From Serratia plymuthica (lineage in GTDB: Bacteria; Pseudomonadota; Gammaproteobacteria; Enterobacterales; Enterobacteriaceae), in the NCBI RefSeq assembly GCF_018336935.1, contig NZ_CP068771.1:2108001-2172000 (forward strand): a stretch of DNA of 64,000 nt, in the 5' to 3' direction. The notes under the pieces are model-generated. The model worked only from the letters and a program-made list of their open reading frames with translations, had not been told where the DNA came from and searched no databases. The translations under genes and the position numbers were made by a program. How positions within the stretch are numbered: position 1 is the first letter of the stretch; each line of letters opens with the position of its first letter. Positions 10,897 through 23,563 of the stretch are shown here, one piece after another.

Positions 10897-12384
10897 ATGA
10901 CAACTAACGACTCATCTGCACCCCTCGCGCATCGCCCGCTGATTCTGATCGCCTGCATGCTGGCGATGTTTATGTCAGCCATCGAGGCGACGATTGTCGC
11001 CACGGCAATGCCGACCATCATTGGCGATCTCGGCGGTTTCTCGCTGCTGGGCTGGGTCTTTGCGGTCTATTTGCTGGCGCAGGCCATCACCATTCCGATC
11101 TATGGCCGGCTGGCGGATCTATTGGGCCGCAAGCGGGTATTTTTCTTTGGCGCATCGCTGTTTTTGCTGGGATCGGTGTTGTGCGGTTTTTCGCCCAACA
11201 TGTACTGGCTGATTGGTTTTCGGTTGTTGCAGGGGCTGGGCGCCGGGGCGATTATGCCGATCGCGACCACCATTATCGGCGATATCTACAGCGCTACCGA
11301 GCGGCCGAAGGTCATGGGCTATCTGTCCAGCGTGTGGGGCGTGTCGGCAATCATAGGTCCGCTGCTGGGGGCGTTTATCGTCCAGCATTTGCCTTGGGCG
11401 CTGGTGTTCTGGGTCAATTTGCCGATCGGCCTGCTGGCGATGTTTTTCCTCGGCCGCTACCTGCCCCCCAGTAAACAGGTGCGCAAACACGCGCTGGATC
11501 TGGCGGGCACGGCGTGGCTGACGCTGTTTGTCGCGGCGCTGCTCATGTCGTTGCTGCAGGCGGAAAATCTGGGATGGTGGGTGTTGCCGCTGCTGTCGCT
11601 GGCGGCGGTGTCGCTGATGCTGCTGATCCGCCAGGAGCGCCGTGCGCCAGAGCCGTTGTTCCCGTTGGCGCTGTGGCAAAGCCGGGTGATTGTGGCCGGC
11701 AATGTTGGCGGGGTGGTGATCGGCGCGGCGATGATGGGGATCAGCGCTTTTCTGCCGACCTTTATTCAGGGCGTGATGGGCGGAACGCCGCTGGAAGCCG
11801 GAACCACGCTGGCGCTGATGTCGATTGGCTGGCCGCTGGCCAGCACCCTGAGCGGGCGGCTGATGCTGATGACGTCTTACCGTACCACTGCGTTGCTGGG
11901 GGCGCTGTTGCTGGTAGCCGGCGGATTGATCTTATTGCTGCTGCAGCCGAACGGCGGTCTGCTGTGGGGGCGGGTGGCGGCCTTTATGGTGGGGGCCGGC
12001 ATGGGCTTGTGCAACACCACGTTTCTGGTTTCAGTGCAAAACGCCGCGCATCACAGCATTCGCGGCATAGCCACCGCCTGTACGGTATTCACCCGGATGG
12101 TGGGGTCGGCCATCGGCACCGCTATTCTGGGCGCGACGTTGAACCTTAACTTGCAGCACCGTCTGCCGCAAACCGCCGATCCGGTGCAGCAATTGATGGA
12201 GCCGGCAGTGCGCGCCGCCATGACGCCGGAAAAACTGGCGGATGTGGTTCAACAGGTGGCCGCTTCGTTGCATTGGGTGTTTTTGGTTTCCGCACTGATT
12301 TCGTTGCTGGCGCTGGCGGCGGCGATGTTGATCCCCGCGCGGCACAGGCCGCAAGGCGAGGGTGAAGAGGCGGAGCAGGCGTAG
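10897..12384 (+). CDS. DHA2-family (EmrB/QacA-like) MFS drug exporter
   Basis: Predicted 14-helix proton antiporter, 495 residues, of the drug:H+ antiporter-2 family. Motif D1/1 (AMFMSAIEATIVATAMPTI) and motif A (GRLADLLGRKRVFFFG) lie in the first three helices, and motif C (GVSAIIGPLLGAFI) in helix 5; the last is diagnostic of exporters. The C-terminal tail is acidic and cytoplasmic. No membrane-fusion partner is adjacent, so it probably pumps to the periplasm alone. It stands after the matS site and before the accessory block. Substrates cannot be read from sequence. Confidence 0.85.
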   Translation: MTTNDSSAPLAHRPLILIACMLAMFMSAIEATIVATAMPTIIGDLGGFSLLGWVFAVYLLAQAITIPIYGRLADLLGRKRVFFFGASLFLLGSVLCGFSPNMYWLIGFRLLQGLGAGAIMPIATTIIGDIYSATERPKVMGYLSSVWGVSAIIGPLLGAFIVQHLPWALVFWVNLPIGLLAMFFLGRYLPPSKQVRKHALDLAGTAWLTLFVAALLMSLLQAENLGWWVLPLLSLAAVSLMLLIRQERRAPEPLFPLALWQSRVIVAGNVGGVVIGAAMMGISAFLPTFIQGVMGGTPLEAGTTLALMSIGWPLASTLSGRLMLMTSYRTTALLGALLLVAGGLILLLLQPNGGLLWGRVAAFMVGAGMGLCNTTFLVSVQNAAHHSIRGIATACTVFTRMVGSAIGTAILGATLNLNLQHRLPQTADPVQQLMEPAVRAAMTPEKLADVVQQVAASLHWVFLVSALISLLALAAAMLIPARHRPQGEGEEAEQA

Positions 12385-12519
12385 TAAAAGCGAGCCGCTC
12401 GCTGCCTTCAATCTCCGTCCAATACGGCCTGCGCGTTTTTTCGCACTACAGAAGGGTGCTCCCAAGACCCGCGGCAAAAGCGATTACATAATAAATCATG
12501 CTCATGCGTTTCATACCTG

Positions 12520-13917
12520 TCAGTGCGCCTGCTCCAGCGGCAGGAAGGTCTCGGCAAAAATATCGGGCTCATACCCGGCGGCGGCAAACAGATGCTCACG
12601 AGATTCATCAATCGCTGCACGAAGTCGTGTGCTGTCCACACCCAGAACTTTGCCGTTCTGCTTGACGATGCGTCCGCCGATCATGACGGTATCAATGTTG
12701 CTGCGCTCTGTCGCATGTACCACCGTGCCAAAGGCATTCCCGGACGGGTAGAGGTTGATGTCGCCGGTGTTAATCAGGATCAGGTCTGCCTGTTTGCCTG
12801 GCGTCAGGCTGCCAATTTTGTCCTGCAGCCCTGCACAGGCAGCACCATCGACGGTCGCCGCTTTCAGGAGTTGTACTGCCGGAAGCGTTTTCAGCGAAGG
12901 TGCGGAATCGCAGCAGTGCTGCTGATGCATGCCCATCACCCGCTGCAGGTAAAATGCCACGCGCATTTCCATAAACATGTCGCTGCTGTAGGACGTTTCA
13001 TTGTCCACGCTCAGGCCGGGGTTGATGCCATGACGCTGCGCAGCCTGAATGGCAAACATACCGTTTTCGATACCATAGTGCGCATCGGAACGTGGGCAGA
13101 CGTTCACCCGGACACCGGCTTCTTGCAGGATTTTCCATCCCTCGTCAGGCAGCGCCGTGCAGTGATTGAAAATATTGTCCGGGCCCAGAAGGCCCTTTCG
13201 ATGCAAGGGTTCAAGCTCCGATGCCATCTCGGCACCAAAGAATTCAGTGACGATCGACAGTCCCAGCTTGCGGGCCTCAGCCCACAGCTCTGGCTCCAGC
13301 TGTGCCATGACCGCAAGAGAAACAAGGCTTTCAGGATTGTTCTTGAAGTACTTTTCCTGCAGGCGTTGCCAGTTACCCGGCCAGTGCGCTTTATCCCATT
13401 CGCCTGCTACCGGTGCCCCCGAGGCATGTATGGCACGAATACCTGTGTCAAGCAGGGCCTCAACGGCGGCATCGGAATGTGCGGCGGTGCGGCTGTTGTG
13501 CGAATTATCAATCACCGTGGTGATGCCTGCGTCAATACAGCCCAGGGCAGTCAGCAGGTTACCAATATAGATATCGGCAGGCCGATAGTATTTGGCGAAA
13601 GAGAAATGCGTTGCGTTGCTGTAGTCGTCCAGACAGGTGGCGTTAGGGTTAATGCGGCGGAGTTGTCCTTCCCATGAGTGACGATGAGAATCCACCATCC
13701 CCGGCATGGCGATCATGTTCGTGGCGTCTATAACATAGGCACCCTGTGCGTCCAGGTTCCGACCCACGGCGGTAATGGTTGATCCGCTGATAAGAATATC
13801 ACCGCGTTCAATATTACCGACACTCTCATCCATGCTCAGTATCGTTGCGTTTCGTATCAAGGTTGCCGGCGAGTTTACAGACTGATTATTAACAATATTT
13901 CTGATGTAATCTGTCAT
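12520..13917 (-). CDS. Amidohydrolase-superfamily deaminase/chlorohydrolase-like enzyme
   Basis: A 465-residue member of the AtzA/TrzA/cytosine deaminase branch of the metal-dependent hydrolases. The beta-sandwich plus TIM barrel layout is evident: MVDSHRHSWEGQ gives the H-x-H pair at the first strand, IFNHCTALPDE the third histidine position, and GLSVDNETSYSSD the catalytic aspartate. The end PGKQADLILINTGD closes the sandwich. At the second-strand position where most relatives have a metal-binding H (H-x-x-E), this protein reads LSIVTEFFGAE and I see no histidine. The metal site may be altered or the substrate unusual. It is divergent from a LysR gene at 14049. Confidence 0.8.
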   Translation of the reverse strand: MTDYIRNIVNNQSVNSPATLIRNATILSMDESVGNIERGDILISGSTITAVGRNLDAQGAYVIDATNMIAMPGMVDSHRHSWEGQLRRINPNATCLDDYSNATHFSFAKYYRPADIYIGNLLTALGCIDAGITTVIDNSHNSRTAAHSDAAVEALLDTGIRAIHASGAPVAGEWDKAHWPGNWQRLQEKYFKNNPESLVSLAVMAQLEPELWAEARKLGLSIVTEFFGAEMASELEPLHRKGLLGPDNIFNHCTALPDEGWKILQEAGVRVNVCPRSDAHYGIENGMFAIQAAQRHGINPGLSVDNETSYSSDMFMEMRVAFYLQRVMGMHQQHCCDSAPSLKTLPAVQLLKAATVDGAACAGLQDKIGSLTPGKQADLILINTGDINLYPSGNAFGTVVHATERSNIDTVMIGGRIVKQNGKVLGVDSTRLRAAIDESREHLFAAAGYEPDIFAETFLPLEQAH

Positions 13918-14048
13918 TTAAAGTGCCTCTTTTCTAATCAACAGGAAAACGATACTTCGCTCTATTAACCTGAAAAAGATGCTTAAAGCGTTTTCATAAT
14001 TCATAATTTACGAATAATAAGATTTACTGTCGGCTTGGGAGAAGGAAA

Positions 14049-14933
14049 ATGGACCGTATTCAGGCTATGCAGGTCTTTACGCGGGTGGCCGAAGTCGGAA
14101 GCTTCGTACGCGCAGCAGAAACACTTTCACTGCCTTCTTCCACGGTAACCAGCACGATTAAAAACCTTGAGAAATACTTGCAGGTGCGTCTGCTTAACCG
14201 GACGACGAGACGGGTGAGCCTCACCCCTGAAGGATTGCGGTATCTTACGCAATGCCGCGAAATCCTGTCGTTAATTGAACATACTGAATCCAGCCTGGCA
14301 GACTCCGTCAGGCGGCCACAGGGGCGGCTGCGGGTTGATATGCCCGGAGGGATCGCCCATTTCATCGTCATGCCAAAGTTGAAGGACTTTTACCGGCTTT
14401 ATCCGGATATTTACCTGATGATTGGGGTGAGCGACCGGCAGGTCGATCTCATCCAGGAGGGCGTAGACTGCGTAATCAGAACGGGGGAATTAACGGACTC
14501 CACACTTGTTGGCCGTCCGCTTGGAAGGTTTCGCTGGGTGACCTGCGCCTCTCCGGATTATCTCAAGGCATACGGTATCCCCAAAACACCTGAGGAATTG
14601 TCACAGCATCGGGCGATCCATTACTTTTCCGGCTCGGCCAGGCGCACGAATGAACTGCGTTTTGCGCGTGGCACTGAGACGCTGTCCGTCCCGGTGAAGG
14701 GAGATACAGCCGTTAACGAAACGGGACTCTATATCAAAATGTGTCTTGAAGGTTTCGGGCTGGCACAGCTTGCTGAGAATGTGATCTCTGAGAATCTTCA
14801 GGAAGGGAGCCTGGTTGAGGTTCTGGCAGACTGGCAGCCGCCGTCAGTACCGGTAACGATGCTTTACCCGCATCAGCGCTTTCTTTCTCCCGCAGTGCGC
14901 GCGTTTGCCGACTGGATCGCCAGGATTATCTGA
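14049..14933 (+). CDS. LysR-family regulator, CrgA/AaeR-like group
   Basis: A 294-residue LysR regulator of the branch that opens MDRIQAMQVFTRVAEVGSFV, with the helix-turn-helix ETLSLPSSTVTSTIKNLE at about residues 25-45 and the wing RLLNRTTRRVSLT. The effector domain runs from about residue 90. Being divergent from the amidohydrolase with 131 bp between starts, it is the obvious candidate regulator of that gene. GGAGAAGG precedes the ATG. Third-position base use is less GC-biased than in the core genes nearby. Confidence 0.85.
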   Translation: MDRIQAMQVFTRVAEVGSFVRAAETLSLPSSTVTSTIKNLEKYLQVRLLNRTTRRVSLTPEGLRYLTQCREILSLIEHTESSLADSVRRPQGRLRVDMPGGIAHFIVMPKLKDFYRLYPDIYLMIGVSDRQVDLIQEGVDCVIRTGELTDSTLVGRPLGRFRWVTCASPDYLKAYGIPKTPEELSQHRAIHYFSGSARRTNELRFARGTETLSVPVKGDTAVNETGLYIKMCLEGFGLAQLAENVISENLQEGSLVEVLADWQPPSVPVTMLYPHQRFLSPAVRAFADWIARII

Positions 14934-14991
14934 AACTTTCACTTCATACAGGTTAATGGCAACCCAAAGTGACTCTAGAAGAGGAATTACT

Positions 14992-15531
14992 GTGATCAAG
15001 TTAAGACCGGCTCAATACGGGGATGTCGATGAGATTGCACTTCTGCATACTGCCGGATGGCGAGATACTTACGGCAACGTTATGTCTTCAGATTTTCTCG
15101 AGAACTATGCGCAAAAAGAGCTCCTCTCCTACTGGAACTCTGTATTGAGCAAGTACAGCGACGATGTGGCCGTTTTCGTCGCTGAAAAAGAAGGAAAAGT
15201 TGAGGGGTTTATATGTGTAAAACTTCAGAATGACGCGCAATGGGGAGCGTATATCGATAGCCTGCATATCAGTTCGGCTCTCCGGGGGCAGGGCGCTGGA
15301 AAAAAGTTGCTCCGTCACGCAGCAGAATGGATAAATGGTATGGACGCTGTGTCAGCGATTTACCTGTGGGTATTTGAAGACAATGTCAGGGCAACAATTT
15401 TTTATCAGAATGTTGGAGGGGTCATTGTGGAGCGTACAGTCTCCGATTTGCCTTCGGCAGATAAAGCCCCGATATTCAGGGTTAGCTGGAAAAATGCCAG
15501 TCAGCTTATCATGGGTACCCTTGGCGCTTGA
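14992..15531 (+). CDS. GNAT-family N-acetyltransferase
   Basis: A 179-residue acetyl-CoA-dependent acetyltransferase. The fold signature is VIKLRPAQYGDVDEIALLH at the start, DSLHISSALRGQGAGKKLL as motif A (the pyrophosphate-binding R/Q-x-x-G-x-G), and a C-terminal YQNVGG motif B segment. The GTG at 14992 is chosen because GAGG at 14981-14984 is correctly spaced and the fold begins there; upstream ATGs in frame add unrelated residues. It lies 58 bp after the LysR gene and may be cotranscribed. The target amine is unknown. Confidence 0.75.
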   Translation: MIKLRPAQYGDVDEIALLHTAGWRDTYGNVMSSDFLENYAQKELLSYWNSVLSKYSDDVAVFVAEKEGKVEGFICVKLQNDAQWGAYIDSLHISSALRGQGAGKKLLRHAAEWINGMDAVSAIYLWVFEDNVRATIFYQNVGGVIVERTVSDLPSADKAPIFRVSWKNASQLIMGTLGA

Positions 15532-15703
15532 GCTGAACTGTCCTTATCTGTAGCGAAGGTATCTGTTTTTACTGGCATGCTGCTGAATGACTAATCCTGG
15601 ATCAAAGAGGACATTGGAGCATGTGTCAGTCCGCTCTGTGCCAGAGCGGAAGTTGCTAATATCTATCTGCATAATCTGTGGGGAGCAGATCAGGGGGGAC
15701 TAG

Positions 15704-15831
15704 GATGCGCAGGTGGGTGAAGCGCTGAGTCGGATGACGCAATTGGGGATAACGCGCAGCGTTCGGATCACATGACAGGTATGCCAACAGTAGCCATCCT
15801 GTCGACTAACTCTGATTTATTCAACAAAGCC
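15704..15831 (+). mobile_element. IS5-family (IS903-like) remnant
   Basis: The frame from 15704 to the stop at 15775 reads DAQVGEALSRMTQLGITRSV and then RIT, the end of an IS5/IS903-type transposase. About 40 bases later, 15814-15831 is GATTTATTCAACAAAGCC, the exact complement of the IS903 terminal inverted repeat as I know it. The rest of the transposase upstream is not recognisable and the other end is missing. It marks the left side of the AT-rich NdpA unit and points to transposition in this block. Confidence 0.72.
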
Positions 15832-16006
15832 TCTAACTTCCTAAATACTGTCGCTTTGTACATGTATGCAAGAAAAAAAACTTTGTACACCTAGCCATAA
15901 ACATTACACTATCCGCAACACAGATCTTTCGTGGTTGAAAGAGATTTTTCAACTTTTTATGAAGTTAGGTGAATCACTACGGTGATATATTGATAATGGG
16001 TGCAAG
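15832..16006 (+). promoter_or_regulatory. Leader of the NdpA-like two-gene unit
   Basis: An AT-rich 175-bp stretch between the IS end and the first gene. The octamer TTTGTACA occurs twice, at 15855-15862 and 15882-15889, 27 bases apart, and could be an operator pair. No recognisable -35/-10 of high quality was identified. The remainder back to 15532 holds the IS remnant and otherwise nothing I can name. Confidence 0.3.
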
Positions 16007-17092
16007 ATGGCATTTCAGTTAAGGCATTGTGTTATACACGAACTTGTAAAAGAAAGTGGAAAACAGCGCGTTGAGGATATTATTAAGCAGGTTCTTCCTA
16101 CAGATGACAAGTATGTGCAGGACTTAGTAAAATCCTTAAATGACTTAATTGGAAAGAAAGAAAACCAAGCAGCAAGAGGGACTTTTGATATTGAGGATCC
16201 TACTTATAAGGTACCGAATGCCTTCCAGGGCTATTACAACGGTAGGGCAGGGTCTGATTCATTTCATACATTTTCAACAGTGTGTATGAATGAACTTACC
16301 CGACAAGCAAAAGATCCTTCAAGAGTTGCCGCATCTGGTGGAGCAATAGTATTTGCTCATTACACAAGTGGTACCTCTAACTTCATGCTTATTACGATGG
16401 TTAAGCAAAAAGAAGCTTTACGGCTAGATGAAAATTTAAAGCCGGTAGGAACCGTTCAAATAGATATGGCTAAGATACACCAAGCTGCACGGATAAACTT
16501 TGATAGATACCATCAATATGAAGTATTACCGGAAGAAGAGAAACCTACATATCTCGCCTTCGTCAGTCCTAAAATAAATCAAGATGCTTCAGGATATTTT
16601 GTAGCAGCCTTAGGATGTTCAGATAGTGTTCCCTCTGCTAAAGCCACTGATGGTGCACTTAATGGAGTAAAACAATACTTCGAAGCGAACAAAGAGTTAA
16701 CTGCGTATAAAAATCAAGCTTATGATGCTGTACTCAATTACTTAACATTAAAAGAAGATGGTAAATTAGCATCTCTAACCGAAATCGATCATGCAGTTAG
16801 AGGTATAGTTCCGGCAGAAAAGCATGAATATATGGATAATTTTATAACTTATCTTAATAGCGAAGAAATTGGACTACCGTTAGAGTTTTCTATTAACAGA
16901 GCTGTACTCGGTAGGCGTGCTAAAGTAAAAGCTAAGTCAAATGGGTGGGAATTAAATTTTGAAAGGCGATTTTTCGGTACAACTCCAGGATCAGTAATTC
17001 AGTATAATCGAGCAGATAAAAAACTGATAATATCGAAGCTAGATGATAATACCATACAAAAGTTAGAAGCTGTCCTTAAAGAGAGAGGGTAA
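16007..17092 (+). CDS. NdpA/YejK-family nucleoid-associated protein
   Basis: A 361-residue protein of the 37-kDa nucleoid-associated family (YejK/NdpA). Family traits are the opening RHCVIHELVKE, the AFQGYYNGR-like segment, a central LAFVSPK strand, and the FSINRAVLGRRAKVKAKSNG block near residue 300. Core YejK binds DNA and is abundant in the nucleoid, with no known catalysis. This copy is not in the yejK context: it is AT-rich, preceded by an IS remnant, and followed after only two bases by a gene for a membrane protein of unknown family. That fixed pairing in an accessory block suggests a specialised system such as phage defence, but nothing in the sequence proves it. Confidence 0.8.
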   Translation: MAFQLRHCVIHELVKESGKQRVEDIIKQVLPTDDKYVQDLVKSLNDLIGKKENQAARGTFDIEDPTYKVPNAFQGYYNGRAGSDSFHTFSTVCMNELTRQAKDPSRVAASGGAIVFAHYTSGTSNFMLITMVKQKEALRLDENLKPVGTVQIDMAKIHQAARINFDRYHQYEVLPEEEKPTYLAFVSPKINQDASGYFVAALGCSDSVPSAKATDGALNGVKQYFEANKELTAYKNQAYDAVLNYLTLKEDGKLASLTEIDHAVRGIVPAEKHEYMDNFITYLNSEEIGLPLEFSINRAVLGRRAKVKAKSNGWELNFERRFFGTTPGSVIQYNRADKKLIISKLDDNTIQKLEAVLKERG

Positions 17093-17094
17093 TT

Positions 17095-18381
17095 ATGTGC
17101 GCCCAACAATTTGAAAAATTAGTCAATTTATATCGTGGGCTAGGTAGACCTGCGATGACTGATTCTCAATTTATTTTTGAGGGAAAACTTAGAGATAACC
17201 TTATACAGCTAAAAGAGTTATGGGATGAACATAATCCAATGCTCTCAGATTTTGAAATATCATTTAATGGTTCGAGTGTCGGGACCTATTTTGGTGATAT
17301 TTTCCCGACCAATATTGATAATAATAAAAAAATAACACTGAAAGTTTCTTTGCCTAGTGGTGATTTTCAGTTTGTAGATTCACTTGATGTCTTTTTATCA
17401 TTTGATAATAAATTGAACATGGGGTTAGATGTCGAGAATGTATACCTTGTCCAAGAAAATTATGTTTTTGGAGAAAAGACAAACAATGAAAAAATTAAAA
17501 ATACATTAATATTATCTCACTTTATAAATGAACTTGGTAAGCTAGCAAACTACATTGATCGCATTGATGACAATGGCCGTCTTAAAATTGTATTTATTGA
17601 TGCCGGAAGCTCTAAAAAAATACCGCCAATTGTTATTGAGCCCAATATATCAATAGAGAATGTATCTTATCCTACAGTAGATTTATCAGTCTTTAATAAC
17701 ATCAATAATCATGAGAATGATAATGCTCACGTTCAAGAAAAACAATCAATGTTTAGAGTTTCATTAATTGAAGTGCTAAGAGAGGTGGATAGAGAGGATG
17801 GTAATTTTAATAACTTAATTAAGCACTGGGAACTTCTTAAAGAGACCTATTACGGTAATTTCGAATGTTATTTAACTAATTTTTCATTTCTGAAACAAAA
17901 AAAAGAAGCTGCCGAAAATTACATGTCAGTTTCAAGCAAAATATCAAGTACACTATCCTCTATTTCAGGGAAGCTTTTCGGACTTCCGATTTCCATAGGT
18001 GTTGCTCTTGCTATTTTAAAGTCATCACAAAAGTTTGAAGGTATTCTCACCTTAATTGGTGTCGCAATTACATCGCTATTAATACTCTTTACTATTCAAG
18101 ATCAAAGAAAGGTTCTTTATTCGATAAGGGCATCTATAGATGCTTTATTTAGCCATACAAAGTCAGCTAAATCTGGCGAACTGTCAGAACTTATAGCCGC
18201 CCACAAAAGAGATCTTTTTTCTCAAGCTGATAAGCTTAACTTAGTAATGGTTATCTTTTTGATTTTATCAATTACGCCTTTCATCCTCTCATTACTAGTT
18301 TATTTATCAAAATTTGAACCAGCTATTGTTATTAAACTCGATACATATATATCAATATTTATGAAGCAACTGTTGTCCTGA
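17095..18381 (+). CDS. Unknown protein with three C-terminal membrane segments
   Basis: I do not recognise this 428-residue protein. Residues 1-290 are soluble, rich in N, D and K, with beta-like stretches (FEISFNGSSVGTYFGDIFP; DSLDVFLSFDNKLNMG) and a helical part at about 225-290. Hydrophobic segments lie at about 293-310, 315-334 and 381-404, with a cytoplasm-like helical loop (QDQRKVLYSIRASIDALF) between the second and third. GAGAGAGGG precedes the ATG, two bases after the NdpA stop, so the two are surely one operon. A DNA-side sensor paired with a membrane effector is a common design of abortive defence systems; that is inference. Codon use is strongly AT-biased, unlike the flanking chromosome. 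Confidence 0.75.
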   Translation: MCAQQFEKLVNLYRGLGRPAMTDSQFIFEGKLRDNLIQLKELWDEHNPMLSDFEISFNGSSVGTYFGDIFPTNIDNNKKITLKVSLPSGDFQFVDSLDVFLSFDNKLNMGLDVENVYLVQENYVFGEKTNNEKIKNTLILSHFINELGKLANYIDRIDDNGRLKIVFIDAGSSKKIPPIVIEPNISIENVSYPTVDLSVFNNINNHENDNAHVQEKQSMFRVSLIEVLREVDREDGNFNNLIKHWELLKETYYGNFECYLTNFSFLKQKKEAAENYMSVSSKISSTLSSISGKLFGLPISIGVALAILKSSQKFEGILTLIGVAITSLLILFTIQDQRKVLYSIRASIDALFSHTKSAKSGELSELIAAHKRDLFSQADKLNLVMVIFLILSITPFILSLLVYLSKFEPAIVIKLDTYISIFMKQLLS

Positions 18382-18884
18382 TTTAAACAATAGGACGTAA
18401 CATAACCAATCAAATCTAAGTTAGCCAAGCATGTAAGCAATGATTAACGTAATGGCATTAATAGCATTTCATTAAAATCGTGATGCTGGAAACGTTTAAA
18501 AAAATCTCTATATCACTTCATACATTATCGCCCATACCACATAACACGTCCGGCAATGCCGATTTGTTTTACTAAAATAATCAACCCCATATCCCCAATC
18601 GGGTTCCTAGGAAAATTCAACTGAAGTGCGTACTCTTCTATACAAAATCTCTTCTCAACCAGAACCTGAACATGGCAGTTACTGTTTGCTTAATCCGCTT
18701 TGAACTCACAGCTCTTAGCGGACTTCAAGCTCAGTGACCTGCTCCACGCTGAATTATCAGACGCCGTCTGAATTTGCGGCGGGCTGGAGAAAGAGTAATT
18801 CTGAGAGTGAAGGATCCGACATTACTAACTGAGCATTGTATCTAATCATGGGGCAGGTCAAGACCTGTAAGACAAACTGTACCA
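18382..18884. other. 503-bp stretch without a gene
   Basis: Downstream of the membrane-protein gene. I see no open frame with a start signal, no clear terminator hairpin and no recognisable IS end. Base composition shifts from AT-rich near 18400 to balanced near 18750, which suggests a junction between pieces of different origin. Confidence 0.4.
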
Positions 18885-19289
18885 TTATTCTTTTTTGAAC
18901 CTGCCCACAATCAGGTCTTTGATGGAAACACCGTCATCTTTTGCGCGATTATATAATACATAAAATGTTTCCTCATCAACGCTGATGACGAAAGTGCGTT
19001 TGATGATCCTGTCGTAAACGTATGCGCCTGCTAAAATAAGCAAGAAAGTAAGAGAGGCGATTAATAATGCACTAGTTCCTTTATCAATATAGGTAGCAAG
19101 GAGAATACCCACAGGAGCAAGGAATAGCATAATATGAACCGCTAGAAAAAAAGCTGCAGAGCCAAGCCCACTATTCTTGAACTCATTTCTCGTTTTTATC
19201 ATTACAGTTTTAGATACAAGAAAAAAAGGGATCAGAACTAACCCGACTCCCATATATTTCAGATAATCCAACGCAGTTAGAGTGTTCAT
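18885..19289 (-). CDS. Small membrane protein of unknown function
   Basis: A 134-residue protein with three likely membrane segments: about 13-30 (MGVGLVLIPFFLVSKTVM), 43-67 (AAFFLAVHIMLFLAPVGILL) and 74-92 (LLIASLTFLLILAGAYVY). A basic linker and a C-terminal tail of about 40 residues ending in KDLIVGRFKKE follow, and the tail looks ribbon-helix-helix-like only in length. CAGGA stands 7 bases before the ATG on the minus strand. No family recognised. It lies in the accessory block on the opposite strand from its neighbours, so it is probably its own unit. Confidence 0.55.
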   Translation of the reverse strand: MNTLTALDYLKYMGVGLVLIPFFLVSKTVMIKTRNEFKNSGLGSAAFFLAVHIMLFLAPVGILLATYIDKGTSALLIASLTFLLILAGAYVYDRIIKRTFVISVDEETFYVLYNRAKDDGVSIKDLIVGRFKKE

Positions 19290-19593
19290 TAACTATTCCT
19301 GACAGGGGCTCGAGATCGTTGAATGCTGAGGTGAAGTTACTATAAAGGGAGCACCGGAAGATGTCCATGGAGGGTGGTGTGAACAACTGCGAACTTCCGC
19401 TTTCGCTCTTAACTGCCTGCCAAATATCTCACATTCAGCATGAGAAGCGACAGTCTCATCGCTGATAGACTGAAAAATCAGGCTGTCCCGGTGATACGGG
19501 GAATATGAAAAAATAGTACCTCTAATTTGGTCGTGATGGGACGATACCCCCTGTAAAGCGCGGGACGGTCGCGCACCAACTGGAGACATACCC
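19290..19593. other. Intergenic stretch between two orphan genes
   Basis: About 300 bp between the divergently placed small genes at 18885-19289 and 19594-19803. It should contain both promoters. A 100-codon frame on the minus strand spans it, but its composition (many H, S, P and C) and lack of a start signal argue against coding. Nothing else was recognised. Confidence 0.35.
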
Positions 19594-19803
19594 ATGAAAT
19601 CTTACGATCTGCTACTGACTATCATCAGCTTTACCGCTGATTTCCGTTCCAGATATCGTTTAAACGGAACCATGCTGAATTACAGGTGCTACGAAACATT
19701 TTACATCTGGATCGGTATGTACGTGCTGGATGAAACAGAAACGATGGCTGTACGCGAGTTTGCTCTGAATGAAATGCACCTGCTGGCGATAGATGCCGAC
19801 TGA
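19594..19803 (+). CDS. Small orphan protein
   Basis: A 69-residue product beginning MKSYDLLLTIISFTADF and rich in Y, E and M; no family recognised. Support for coding is local: GGAGA stands 7 bases before the ATG, and a good rho-independent terminator begins 10 bases after the stop. Such small acidic orphan genes are common in phage- and plasmid-derived pieces. It could be a small regulator or anti-system factor, but there is no direct sign of function. Confidence 0.5.
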   Translation: MKSYDLLLTIISFTADFRSRYRLNGTMLNYRCYETFYIWIGMYVLDETETMAVREFALNEMHLLAIDAD

Positions 19804-19812
19804 TGATGACTG

Positions 19813-19833
19813 AGCCCCTCTGGGGGCTTTATT
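19813..19833 (+). terminator. Rho-independent terminator after the 69-aa gene
   Basis: Stem AGCCCC/GGGGCT with a 4-base loop (19813-19828), followed by TTATT. It lies just after the stop of the small gene and fits as its terminator. Confidence 0.65.
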
Positions 19834-20004
19834 AGGGACAGAATTGGCAGACCGTCAGGCGTTAGCCAGAGAGGTCTGAACGTCCCCTGAGTGCCAGGAG
19901 CGGACGTTGTTGACAAGAAATTTCACTAATCAACAGGCTAGCTCGTTAAAACCAGTAGTAAACTGCTATGGTGTTTACGCTATCAACATCCGACTGAAAA
20001 AATG

Positions 20005-20453
20005 TACCCGTAATGCACGCGAGTTTCTGTGATCTCACGGATACGCAGACGCAGCGCACTGTCATCGGCCGCCACGGAGCGATAGCGAAACGAACTGCGA
20101 CTAACCCGCAGCGCAAACAGACCTGCCTTTCGCTGGCCCCGTAACGCGCCTGCAGGTCTCGGACCCATTCACGCAACCGTGCCAGCGTCAGGTCTTTTTT
20201 GCTAGCACGTCCTGCAGCATCGCCTTGTCGAGACTCAGATCGGCCACCAGTTTCTCAGCTGCAGGTTTTCCTCTTCAAGCTGGCGCATGTGCTTCAGCTC
20301 AGAGGGCGAAATGCCACCGTATTTCTTGCGCCACGTATAGAACGTGGCATCAGAAATGCCCAGCTTACGGTAGACCTCAGGCACCGACGTACCCAGTTCG
20401 GCCTGCTTGAGGGCAAAGACAATCTGCTCTTCGGTGAATCGTGATTTTTTCAT
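20005..20453 (-). pseudogene. IS3-family transposase remnant (orfA plus start of orfB)
   Basis: On the minus strand from the ATG at 20453 the product starts MKKSRFTEEQIVFALKQAEL and continues with SDATFYTWRKKYGG, the OrfA HTH of the IS407/IS1222-like branch of IS3. Near 20265 a frameshift removes the usual end, which is still readable in another frame as KLVADLSLDKAMLQDVL. OrfB then starts as MREWVRDLQARYGASERQVC, shifts frame again at about 20115, and continues as SRSSFRYRSVAADD before being cut off at about 20005. Two frameshifts and a missing 3' part make it inactive. It lies directly upstream of the ATPase-PIN pair. The rest of 19834-20693 holds no other gene. Confidence 0.85.
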
Positions 20454-20693
20454 CGGCACCACCTCCGTTCAGGGAGTGTAGATCATGCCGGAATTCTGTT
20501 TCTGAATGGAGCAGGATTTTGGGTCAGGGTCAAAACAGCACAGGAAAGATCCGCAAGCACCTGACATTAGATACATTTCCCCTATTTTTTTTGCTATTCT
20601 GCCCCAATATGTTGCAAAGGGTGGAACTATATCAATCAAGCCCTCTCATCTACGATACAGAAGAAGTATGCGAGATGTGATACAGGAGAATAT

Positions 20694-21989
20694 ATGTTAA
20701 CGGAAATTCTGATTAAAGATTTTAAAAGTTACAAACAACAGACGTTACATCTGTCTCCCTTAACACTCATGATTGGTGCAAATGCTTCCGGTAAAAGTAA
20801 CGCCCTAGAAGCATTTCGTTTTCTGTCCTGGCTTGCGCAGGGGCAGAAACTGTCAGTCCTTAAACATCGCGTTGATGACTCCGAGCAAATCCTTCGCGGC
20901 CAGGTAAAAGACCTAGGGTATTTGGGCGCAAACGCATTCAGGCTAGGCTGCTCCATTGATGACAGCCATTGGAACCATTTTGAAGTTGAGATCACCTTAC
21001 GAGAACAAGAGCTTCACATTTCTCAGGAGACGATTACCTCAACGAAGGAGACTTCCCCTCTTTACCGAATAGAACAGGTTTCTTCAGGCTTGGGTACTGA
21101 TGTACGGGTGGCCTACAACAACTTTTCGCGAGGTGGACGTAAGCCTCAAGTCAATTGTACTGACCAGATTGCAATTATGAATCAACTGGCATCATCAGCG
21201 ATGTTTGATTCAGGACATAAAAAGGCTCAGAGAGAAATTCCTGTAACCACGACCTTATTTCAGAATTTGCTATCAAATACGCTTTTTTTGGATCCTGTGC
21301 CTTCGCTAATGCGAGGTGATAGTTATCCAGAAAAACGCCTGCGTGGCGATTGTGCCAATCTGTCTGGCGTGTTGTTTACTCTTTGGCAAAATGAAAATGC
21401 AAAGCCGGTAATTGTCGATTTCATCAAAAGTTTACCGGAACAAGATGTTAAAGATATAACCTTCTTTGAAGATCGAAGGGGAAAAGTATCCCTGGAATTA
21501 CTAGAGTCTTTCGGTAATCAGGATCGAAAATGCTCAGTGGAGTTACTTTCTGACGGAACACTGCGAGTGCTGGCAATCGCAGCAGCTTTGTTATCAATTC
21601 CACAAGGGTCGACTCTGGTCATAGAGGAAGTGGATAATGGTGTTCATCCTTCCCGTGCGAGGCAATTACTGACTACGATGCGTGAACAAGCTCAAAAAAG
21701 AGACATTCGATTATTAATGTCCACGCACAATCCGGCCCTCATGGACGCTTTACCTGATTCCGCATTAGGCGATGTAGTGTTTTGTTATCGCAATAAAGAT
21801 ACTGGGGATAGTCAGCTAATGAGATTATCGGATTTGAATGATTTCCCGGGTCTGGTTTCCCAAGGACCATTGGGTGAACTGGTAACCAATGGTGTTGTAG
21901 ATCGCTTTGTTAAATCACCGGTTACGCCTGAACAGAAGAAAAAAAATGCAATTGATTGGCTAGCGAAAATGCAGGGGGGCGAACAATGA
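20694..21989 (+). CDS. ABC/SMC-type AAA ATPase (AAA_21/OLD-like), first gene of a pair
   Basis: A 431-residue soluble ATPase of the RecF/OLD-like ABC group. Walker A GANASGKS is at residues 28-35, the signature-like LLSDGTLRVLAIAAAL at 284-299, Walker B LVIEEVD at 308-314 with the catalytic glutamate, a D-loop-like HPSRARQL, and the switch histidine STHN at 343-346. The roughly 200 residues between Walker A and the signature replace the coiled coil of SMC proteins with a compact lid. CAGGAG precedes the ATG. It shares an ATGA overlap with the PIN-like gene, so the two are translationally coupled. ATPases of this type paired with a nuclease are a recurring defence design (OLD, PARIS, retron ATPases); the assignment here is by analogy. 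Confidence 0.85.
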   Translation: MLTEILIKDFKSYKQQTLHLSPLTLMIGANASGKSNALEAFRFLSWLAQGQKLSVLKHRVDDSEQILRGQVKDLGYLGANAFRLGCSIDDSHWNHFEVEITLREQELHISQETITSTKETSPLYRIEQVSSGLGTDVRVAYNNFSRGGRKPQVNCTDQIAIMNQLASSAMFDSGHKKAQREIPVTTTLFQNLLSNTLFLDPVPSLMRGDSYPEKRLRGDCANLSGVLFTLWQNENAKPVIVDFIKSLPEQDVKDITFFEDRRGKVSLELLESFGNQDRKCSVELLSDGTLRVLAIAAALLSIPQGSTLVIEEVDNGVHPSRARQLLTTMREQAQKRDIRLLMSTHNPALMDALPDSALGDVVFCYRNKDTGDSQLMRLSDLNDFPGLVSQGPLGELVTNGVVDRFVKSPVTPEQKKKNAIDWLAKMQGGEQ

Positions 21990-22486
21990 GTGCTGTCTGC
22001 ATCATTGATACCTCTGTTTTCTTGAATCTATTAAACGTACCAGGAAAAAACCAAGATAAAGATTCAATCATTCAGAGCTATTCGGAGTTTGTTCAACTTG
22101 AAACGACATTTATTTTACCAATGGCTACGATCATTGAAACAGGCAATCATATCGCCCAAAATGGTAATGGCACACTCAGGCGAGAAACGGCAGAACGTTT
22201 CCTCATAACGGTAAAAGGAGCCTTTACAGGTGAGGCCCCTTATCGCACGAGTGAGTTTCCCAATACCACAGAAATACTCTCATGGCTTGATCGATTTCCG
22301 CAACTGGCTGGTCAAAATAAGTCCCCAACTAAGCTATTTGAAGGCACAAGTTTTGGCGATCTAAGTATTATTGTAGAATATGAGAAATGCGTTGAAAGAT
22401 TTCCTCTTACGGAAGTATTTATCTGGTCACTTGATAGTGATCTGAATCAATACAGACATATTCCTAGAAGGAGTCCCGCTAGATAG
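21986..22486 (+). CDS. PIN-like nuclease, partner of the ATPase
   Basis: A 166-residue protein with the spaced acidic residues of the PIN fold: D8 in VCIIDTSVFLN, E51 in ATIIETGNH, D125 in FGDLSIIVEYEK, and D150/D152 in WSLDSDLNQY. PIN enzymes cut single-stranded RNA using divalent metal, commonly as VapC-type toxins. It starts inside the ATPase stop codon (ATGA), and no VapB-like antitoxin gene is adjacent, so the ATPase is the likely controller. An in-frame ATG further upstream lies inside the ATPase gene and is rejected. Base composition is intermediate, lower in GC than the core. Confidence 0.75.
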   Translation: MSAVCIIDTSVFLNLLNVPGKNQDKDSIIQSYSEFVQLETTFILPMATIIETGNHIAQNGNGTLRRETAERFLITVKGAFTGEAPYRTSEFPNTTEILSWLDRFPQLAGQNKSPTKLFEGTSFGDLSIIVEYEKCVERFPLTEVFIWSLDSDLNQYRHIPRRSPAR

Positions 22487-22779
22487 TAGGCCTATTACAT
22501 CAACGCTGTGACTTTTTGATTAATTATGTTGGTTCAGGGCTGATCTGACAATTACCGTTTTTTAACACTGTCGCGTATAGATTTATGTACTGCACCGTAT
22601 TAACGACAATAGTTCATCGGTAAAACGGCCTAATCTTTATTAGATTCAGAACCATGATGTATTTATTAGGGGTGATTACCGATTACGATTAGGTCAGCTT
22701 CTCGCTCAAAGCTGTCTGTCATGCCTGCCAAAGAAACCGGCTGAACCTGGGATATTTCCGTTTTCCAAGAGAAAGGAAA
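22487..22779. other. Junction region between accessory block and ynfD-type gene
   Basis: About 290 bp after the PIN-like gene. I see no gene, tRNA or IS end. It is AT-rich at first and becomes balanced by about 22700, which probably marks the right boundary of the accessory block. Confidence 0.35.
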
Positions 22780-22795
22780 GGGCGCGGTTGCGCCC
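22780..22795 (-). terminator. Terminator hairpin of the DUF1161 gene
   Basis: Perfect stem GGGCGC/GCGCCC with a 4-base loop. On the minus strand it follows the DUF1161 stop by about 10 bases and runs into TTTCCTTTC, acceptable for a rho-independent terminator. Confidence 0.6.
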
Positions 22796-22805
22796 TGAAC
22801 TGCGG

Positions 22806-23105
22806 TTATTGCGCGGTTTTGGTGTCCTGGCTGGTGCCGGTCTGAGCCGCGTCACCGTTGTCATCGCCGTTGCTCAGGCGGGTATAGACAATTTTCTGCG
22901 TGTCGTTTTCGCAGTGACCAACGACCAATCCGCCGGCCTGTTGGGCCTGGTCATTGGGCACGATGTCCAGCTTGAAGCCGGATTCCGGGACGCCGTTTTT
23001 GACAATTTTCTGTGAAATGTCCGCCTTCACGCTTTCGCATGAAGCCAAGGCTGCCAAGGGGGCTGCGGTCAGCAGCAGTGCACCCAGGATAAGCGCTTTT
23101 TTCAT
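22806..23105 (-). CDS. ynfD: DUF1161 periplasmic protein, YnfD-like
   Basis: A 99-residue exported protein. The signal peptide MKKALILGALLLTAAPLAALA is followed by SCESVKADISQKIVKNGVP, the standard opening of DUF1161, with a second cysteine in VVGHCENDTQKIVYTR that probably forms a disulphide with the first. The C-terminal tail is rich in D, N and T. Function is unknown. The ATG at 23105 is used: AAGGACG lies upstream of it, and an in-frame TTG one codon earlier is less likely. E. coli ynfD lies in the same map region, which supports the symbol, though the family has several paralogues. Confidence 0.8.
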   Translation of the reverse strand: MKKALILGALLLTAAPLAALASCESVKADISQKIVKNGVPESGFKLDIVPNDQAQQAGGLVVGHCENDTQKIVYTRLSNGDDNGDAAQTGTSQDTKTAQ

Positions 23106-23194
23106 CAATTCGTCCTTATTTGAGCATGAACTTCCTTTGTCACAATAGCAGCAATGGCGGCTGAGGTTAACGTTCGCCGCTTGCTGTGGCGTGA

Positions 23195-23563
23195 TTAAGG
23201 ATTAATCTGACGGCCGGTCTGGCGATCCAGACACTTGCGGGTGTTCGGCTCCCAGTAGGCGTTAACGTTCAGGCTGTCGTCGCAGCGGTCCTCGTTATCA
23301 ATCGCCTTGTCTACCTTGTCGAACTCTTTCTCCACGCGGGTGTTGACCTTATGGCGCAGGGATTTGGTGTCGTTGAACTGTTCTTTGCTCTGGCGTGCCG
23401 CTTCGGTGCTCATGGCGCCGCTGTTGCTGCCATCGACAGTGACGCAGGTGCTGCCCTGAGTGCAGCTGGCGGCCAACGCCGGAGCCTGCCAGGCGCCCAT
23501 CAACATCAGCATGGCGACCGGCAGCATCCCGCGCAGCAGTCGTTGAGTAGAAAGTGTTTTCAT
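23195..23563 (-). CDS. ynfB: DUF1283 exported protein YnfB
   Basis: A 122-residue secreted or periplasmic protein. A signal peptide of about 32 residues ([19 protein letters not shown] and onward, cleavage probably after ALA) precedes the DUF1283 body with [20 protein letters not shown] and the closing CLDRQTGRQ. Four cysteines suggest two disulphides. The role is unknown. AAGGATG is the ribosome site for the ATG at 23563; longer frames upstream lack support. It is divergent from ynfA, as in E. coli. Confidence 0.88.

What the first reader, a model, noticed from the sequence alone, without database searches (positions are those of the whole stretch)
16007..18381. NdpA-like nucleoid protein coupled to an unknown membrane protein
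A YejK/NdpA-family protein outside the yejK locus is followed after two bases by a 428-residue protein with a large soluble N-terminal part and three C-terminal membrane segments. The unit is clearly AT-rich against a GC-rich chromosome and next to an IS903-type end. A DNA-binding sensor plus membrane effector layout recalls abortive-infection systems. I know no described function for this pair.
Basis: partly seen in the sequence, partly recalled or inferred. Interest (0 to 1): 0.75.

Follow-up and report, generated by a model that had tools for sequence, protein, structure and literature searches.

The report
Likely DS1-like phage-defence gene pair
Two linked genes, one for a nucleoid-type DNA-binding protein and one for a membrane protein, form a mobile pair found in prophages, plasmids and genomic islands; the pair is a distant cousin of a recently named anti-phage system, so it probably defends bacteria against viruses, by a mechanism not yet shown.

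Summary
ORFs 16007-17092 (Pfam NA37, the YejK/NdpA family) and 17095-18381 (428 aa, soluble N-terminus, about three C-terminal membrane segments) lie two bases apart at 34% GC, on a 10.4-kb island (12384-22771) absent from this site in the four same-genus genomes compared. 'No described function' is out of date: both proteins are distant homologues of NCBIfam DS1_1/DS1_2, a two-gene anti-phage system, but far below its cut-offs (130 of 330 bits; 66 of 315), so this is a separate clade, not DS1 itself. The genes almost never part. Of 77 loci found with the membrane protein, 73 have NA37 beside it; the rest are three truncated remnants and one contig end. Of 63 viral-contig loci found with NA37, 61 have the membrane gene; two end at the contig edge. 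Protein distances correlate at r=0.96. In 41 of 64 distinct viral records the pair is tail-to-tail with antiterminator Q. Best mechanism, inferred only: Kiwa-like, a membrane protein holding an NA37 protein that captures incoming phage DNA. Novelty is modest; the family's breadth and its Q-linked prophage niche are the additions.

The parts
16007..17092 (+). Gene 1: accessory NA37 (YejK/NdpA-family) protein, 361 aa, predicted DNA-binding component
17095..18381 (+). Gene 2: membrane protein, 428 aa; alpha/beta N-terminal part, a 50-residue helix (245-294), then about three membrane segments
   Evidence: NCBIfam DS1_2 66.4 bits (cut-off 315) over residues 115-374; phrog_5023 1.1e-37; AlphaFold2 pLDDT 82.9; hydropathy
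17081..17089 (+). GAGAGAGGG, Shine-Dalgarno-like, 5 bases before the ATG of gene 2; suggests translational coupling
   Evidence: read from the sequence; gaps of -14 to +12 nt in 54 other loci
15840..18703 (+). Block shared at 86% identity with E. coli O169:H41 (L006) and Siccibacter turicensis (L015): about 165 bp upstream, both genes, about 320 bp downstream
   Evidence: blastn of the island against fetched loci; in the Leclercia contig L014 the match is 15629-18723 at 92%
15814..15831 (-). IS903-type terminal inverted repeat (18 of 18 bases; repeat sequence recalled)
18742..18864 (-). Fragment matching IS3-family transposase DNA of plasmids at about 93-96% identity
12384..22771 (.). Genomic island that holds the pair; four same-genus genomes have 12383/12384 next to 22767, 22772, 22772 and 22790
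   Evidence: L144, L145, L148, L147
20694..21989 (+). AAA ATPase matching PADLOC candidate defence family PDC-M07A, in the same island
   Evidence: 704.9 bits, 9.8e-213
21956..22486 (+). Match to PADLOC candidate defence family PDC-M07B, partner of the above
   Evidence: 240.7 bits, 1.7e-72

Best explanation
The pair is a mobile two-gene anti-phage module of the DS1 superfamily: an accessory YejK-like protein (gene 1) and an obligate membrane partner (gene 2). Shown by sequence: the homology, the operon, the strict pairing, the co-divergence, and carriage by prophages, plasmids and islands. Inferred: the membrane protein sits in the inner membrane with its N-terminal domain and long helix in the cytoplasm, holds the NA37 protein at the membrane, and senses or is positioned at phage entry; the NA37 protein then coats incoming phage DNA and blocks its replication or transcription without cutting it. 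This arrangement resembles Kiwa (KwaA membrane tetramer, KwaB DNA binder).
For: Both proteins hit the two halves of one named anti-phage system, in order. The reverse holds: a profile from the window family retrieves L170 and L174, whose proteins exceed the DS1 cut-offs (367 and 385 bits against 315; 420 and 427 against 330). DefensePredictor section 5 lists a YejK nucleoid-associated domain among domains newly validated in phage defence. Pairing: 38 of 41, 14 of 15 and 2 of 2, 15 of 15, 4 of 4; in reverse 61 of 63. Co-divergence r=0.956 over 74 pairs, highest of 2000 permutations 0.210. 14 of 33 conserved columns of the paired NA37 proteins carry another residue in 27 YejK sequences. Opposite-strand position beside Q in 41 of 64 distinct viral records. 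Company: PDC-M07 in the window island, a NACHT gene, a restriction endonuclease gene. Kiwa mechanism as summarised in passages of PMC12904381. No enzyme family above chance in either protein.
Confidence: 0.55

Rival explanations
1. Abortive infection: the NA37 protein senses phage DNA or an altered nucleoid, then switches on the membrane protein, which opens the inner membrane and kills the infected cell.
For: Layout of a soluble sensor plus a membrane protein; invariant P298, Q337 and P395 in or next to the membrane segments of 55 aligned proteins; a long helix joins the N-terminal domain to them. Membrane-acting effectors are common in defence (established knowledge).
Confidence: 0.27
2. Toxin-antitoxin type module: the membrane protein is toxic by itself and the NA37 protein restrains it.
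For: First gene soluble, second membrane, closely spaced; in the loci examined no full-length membrane gene lacks an NA37 gene where the contig has room.
Against: Three loci keep an open membrane ORF beside a broken NA37 gene: L007 (IS1 insertion), L021 (split ORF) and L177 (split ORF). L020 shows the reverse, an intact NA37 with a split membrane ORF. Sequencing errors could explain the splits, not the IS1.
Confidence: 0.1
3. Not defence: a prophage or island maintenance function, such as tethering the element's DNA or nucleoid to the membrane, or stabilising lysogeny by transcription against Q.
For: Tail-to-tail position with antiterminator Q in 41 of 64 distinct viral records; YejK is a nucleoid protein.
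Against: The pair also sits on plasmids, on tRNA-linked islands and in the window island; 0 of 41 genome-contig loci have Q next to it; the homologous DS1 carries an anti-phage name.
Confidence: 0.08

Closest known systems
DS1 (NCBIfam NF053868 DS1_1_antiphage + NF053869 DS1_2_antiphage; probably DS-1 of DefensePredictor, PMC13092281)
   Same: Same two genes in the same order, both homologous; over-cut-off members L170 and L174 are found by the window family's own profile.
   Different: Window proteins score 130 and 66 bits against cut-offs of 330 and 315. In the membrane-protein tree the window group (3 rows, support 100) and the DS1 group (4 rows, support 95: L170 and L174 over both cut-offs, L172 over one, L173 not scored) are separate; long branches are flagged in the DS1 group.
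YejK/NdpA (core nucleoid-associated protein)
   Different: 20% identity to the genome's own YejK; 14 of 33 conserved columns differ; a membrane partner gene is adjacent.
Kiwa (KwaA/KwaB)
   Same: Two genes, one membrane protein and one DNA binder that does not cut (passages read).
PHROG families phrog_3767 and phrog_5023
   Same: Both window proteins match, 2.4e-61 and 1.1e-37; the prophage copy L076 matches more strongly (5.2e-73 and 1.8e-67).
   Different: phrog_5023 has no assigned function, and the output links the two families in no way.

Membership tests
DS1 (NCBIfam equivalogs) | Protein 1 over the NF053868 cut-off (330 bits) | tested here: not met
   130 bits; L170 and L174 reach 420 and 427
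DS1 (NCBIfam equivalogs) | Protein 2 over the NF053869 cut-off (315 bits) | tested here: not met
   66.4 bits; L170 and L174 reach 367 and 385
DS1 (NCBIfam equivalogs) | NA37 gene directly followed by its homologous membrane gene | tested here: met
   two-base gap; same layout in L170, L172 and L174
DS1 (NCBIfam equivalogs) | Reduces phage plating | not testable with these tools
   needs a bench assay
YejK/NdpA orthologue | NF001557 cut-off (341 bits) | tested here: not met
   117.8 bits
YejK/NdpA orthologue | Is the genome's core NA37 copy | tested here: not met
   the better copy is at 5202711-5203655 with 373.7 bits against 153.5
NA37 superfamily (PF04245) | Score over the Pfam gathering cut-off | tested here: met
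   153.7 against 24.6 bits
Kiwa | KwaA and KwaB profile matches | tested here: not met
   no PADLOC match for either protein at E<=1; no DUF4868 match in Pfam at E<=1 (that KwaB carries DUF4868 is recalled)
Kiwa | KwaB fold | tested here: inconclusive
CorA-type channel | GMN motif (recalled) | tested here: not met
   no GMN in the 428-aa translation

The most novel reading that the evidence does not exclude
A relative of the core nucleoid protein YejK has become the DNA-binding half of a membrane-tethered phage-DNA trap that evolved independently of Kiwa; it has spread through Q-bearing (lambdoid-like) prophages in a slot directly behind antiterminator Q, where convergent transcription may also switch it off when the prophage is induced.
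Probability: 0.3. Interest if true: 0.65.

Novelty: new member of a known kind. Interest (0 to 1): 0.4.

Why it matters
It shows that a freshly named anti-phage system (DS1) is one branch of a larger family of obligate NA37-plus-membrane pairs found in prophages, plasmids and islands, mainly of Proteobacteria in these searches. That gives many natural variants for working out how a nucleoid-type protein could defend against phages, and makes testable the idea that membrane-tethered DNA traps have been built from different DNA-binding proteins.

Tried and rejected

Loci without NA37: L043, L045, L046 and the plasmid locus L010 hold only the C-terminal part of the membrane protein (profile positions 158 or 164 to 423); in L045 the remnant follows an ORF that I read as glmS. 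They look like remnants, not a solo system. A weak DS1_2 match in genome G176 (L137, 20.1 bits) is not matched by the window family's profiles and has no NA37 within its 3.2 kb; I take it as chance or a very remote relative. G447 has a single divergent NA37 without a membrane gene.

Prevalence depends on the profile: A1 found 1 of 369 in the class (own genome only) and 3 of 99 relatives; the broader A5 found 16 of 295 in the order and 8 of 398 in the phylum, own genome included each time. With window DNA 2 of 5426 E. coli genomes match; with prophage-type DNA (L076) 11 of 5426 match over 5-16% of the query, in a nucleoid-associated protein gene, not followed up. Rfam found nothing at gathering scores in 12000-23500. 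Promoter and terminator scans gave no more than shuffles. Plasmid hit H25 and phage hit H69 were not fetched.

Papers. DefensePredictor (PMC13092281): section 5 in full plus passages; figures and supplements not seen; 'DS-1' as a whole word does not occur in its main text. PMC12904381, PMC11984713, PMC12409358 and PMC12753305: passages only. The Kiwa paper (10.1016/j.cell.2025.07.002) and the integron paper (10.1038/s41564-025-01927-7) are not held. In the searches I saw titles and starts of abstracts of the listed papers only; none of these describes this pair.

Rows dropped before counts. The 77 loci are loci, not species: the collections overlap, e.g. L024 and L061 look like one genome. One search took 125 pairs after leaving out L020, L021, L043, L045, L046, L052, L055, L057, L127 and L130 (broken, cut or duplicate), L070-L073 (contigs already present) and L007, L010 and L013; then L166 and L177 went as short, and 123 were thinned to 74 at 85% identity of the membrane protein. 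One search shows 54 loci after leaving out broken, cut and own-genome loci, with start codons chosen by my script. The 64 distinct viral records are the 76 minus 12 contigs present twice (counted from the lists).

Full report
What is there. The first is a Pfam NA37 protein and is not the genome's YejK, which lies elsewhere with 373.7 bits and is 20% identical. The second has no Pfam family at E<=1. The pair has 34% GC against 58% for the window outside its island.

Setting. Of the same-genus genomes I compared four, and in all four window position 12383 or 12384 is joined almost directly to 22767-22790, so the pair lies on a 10.4-kb island, 12384-22771. One of the four (G396) has a pair of its own at another place, and one (G381) a damaged copy. 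The island also carries the PADLOC candidate defence pair PDC-M07A/B at 20694-22486, an IS3-type fragment at 18742-18864 and an IS903-type end at 15814-15831 (repeat recalled). A block at 15840-18703, both genes with about 165 bp before and 320 bp after them, is shared at 86% identity with E. coli O169:H41 and Siccibacter turicensis. In that E. coli the pair sits between arsenic genes and a restriction endonuclease gene, with an integrase next to tRNA-Thr further on. A second E. coli carries it near tRNA-Phe, with IS1 in the NA37 gene. Window DNA matches 2 of 5426 E. coli genomes.

Known relatives. NCBIfam gives DS1_1_antiphage, 'nucleoid-associated anti-phage protein', at 130 bits for protein 1 (cut-off 330; YejK 117.8 of 341) and DS1_2_antiphage at 66 bits for protein 2 (cut-off 315). 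A profile of the window family (A5) run over 295 genomes of the order found 15 loci besides the window's own. Ten of the 15 membrane proteins were scored against NCBIfam: two, L170 and L174, exceed the cut-off, L172 just misses it (311.9), the other seven score 51-98. The NA37 proteins of L170, L172 and L174 exceed theirs. This ties the families together from the other side. DefensePredictor (PMC13092281, section 5 read) names its validated systems DS-n, tested them in E. coli MG1655 against 24 phages, and lists a YejK nucleoid-associated domain among the domains newly validated in defence. That its DS-1 is the NCBIfam DS1 is my inference. The window clade is thus related to a tested system, not itself tested. 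In the membrane-protein tree the window group, the DS1 group and a large prophage group are each one side of a supported branch (100, 95 and 99, quick method, groups named by me, long branches flagged).

Coupling. Five searches with the membrane protein gave 77 loci besides the window's own: 41, 15, 2, 15 and 4 new ones; some are the same genome in two collections. An NA37 gene is next to it in 38, 14, 2, 15 and 4 of these, 73 of 77. The other four are three truncated C-terminal remnants and one contig edge. In 54 loci the gap between the genes runs from -14 to +12 nt. From the other side, 61 of 63 viral-contig NA37 loci have the membrane gene directly downstream; the other two end at the contig edge. 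Over 74 non-redundant pairs the two identity-distance matrices correlate at 0.956; the highest of 2000 permutations was 0.210. In a search of 60 relatives for NA37, second copies that are not pieces of the core copy occur in G000, G396, G381, G391 and G449, and all five have the membrane gene; G447 has one divergent NA37 without it.

Prophage niche. In 41 of 64 distinct viral records, 40 IMG/VR contigs and Klebsiella phage P7641, an antiterminator Q gene on the opposite strand begins or ends within -13 to +86 bp of the end of the membrane gene. In P7641 the pair lies between endolysin and Q against the direction of those genes, and the record has an integrase. None of 41 genome-contig loci shows this. 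It is the usual look of cargo expressed in the lysogen (inference). In the INPHARED phages, 45 of 50,697 records match the NA37 protein (40 listed, all but P7641 at about 20-27% identity), but only 1 matches the window's membrane protein and 2 the prophage-type one, so most of those phage NA37 genes seem to lack a partner at that sensitivity.

Neighbours. Of 109 neighbour proteins of at least 220 aa from 18 of the 41 genome-contig loci, 49 PADLOC models are matched at E<=1e-20 (25 listed): type IIG, type I and type II restriction-modification, Shedu SduA, reverse-transcriptase (DRT), mad2, mad3, mad8 and PDC-S25 among them, nearly all by a single protein. Five proteins match phage integrases and two TnsD/TniQ. 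One protein can match several models, and no control set was run, so this is suggestive only.

Verdict. A real, mobile, tightly coupled pair, best described as a separate clade of the DS1 kind. It fails the DS1 equivalog cut-offs, so it should not be filed as DS1; that it works like DS1 is likely. The family breadth and the Q-linked slot are the useful additions.

Noticed in passing
window 20694-22486: An AAA ATPase and a small partner matching PADLOC candidate defence system PDC-M07A/B lie in the same island.
   Followed up: partly
window 20004-20533: About 530 bp repeated at 86% identity in the same genome (G000:C1:4270724-4271256) and at 85-87% in three same-genus genomes; nature unknown.
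   Followed up: no
L076:7112-8686 and 40 other viral records: The membrane gene and antiterminator Q are convergent and overlap or nearly touch; transcription of one would run antisense into the other.
   Followed up: partly
L045, L046, L043, L010: N-terminally truncated copies of the Pseudomonas-type membrane gene recur on chromosomes and a conjugative plasmid; in L045 it follows an ORF that I read as glmS, which may mean carriage at the edge of a Tn7-like element.
   Followed up: partly
L018:6861-9203: A full pair on a contig binned as Candidatus Moraniibacteriota; either transfer far outside Proteobacteria or a binning error.
   Followed up: no
window 18885-19289: A small hydrophobic ORF on the - strand after the pair, no family at a meaningful score.
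   Followed up: no
L007:9983-11844: IS1 splits the NA37 gene of an E. coli copy while the membrane gene stays open.
   Followed up: yes
H70-H80 (E. coli genomes): 11 of 5426 E. coli genomes match prophage-type NA37 DNA over 5-16% of the query; whether a membrane gene follows was not looked at.
   Followed up: no
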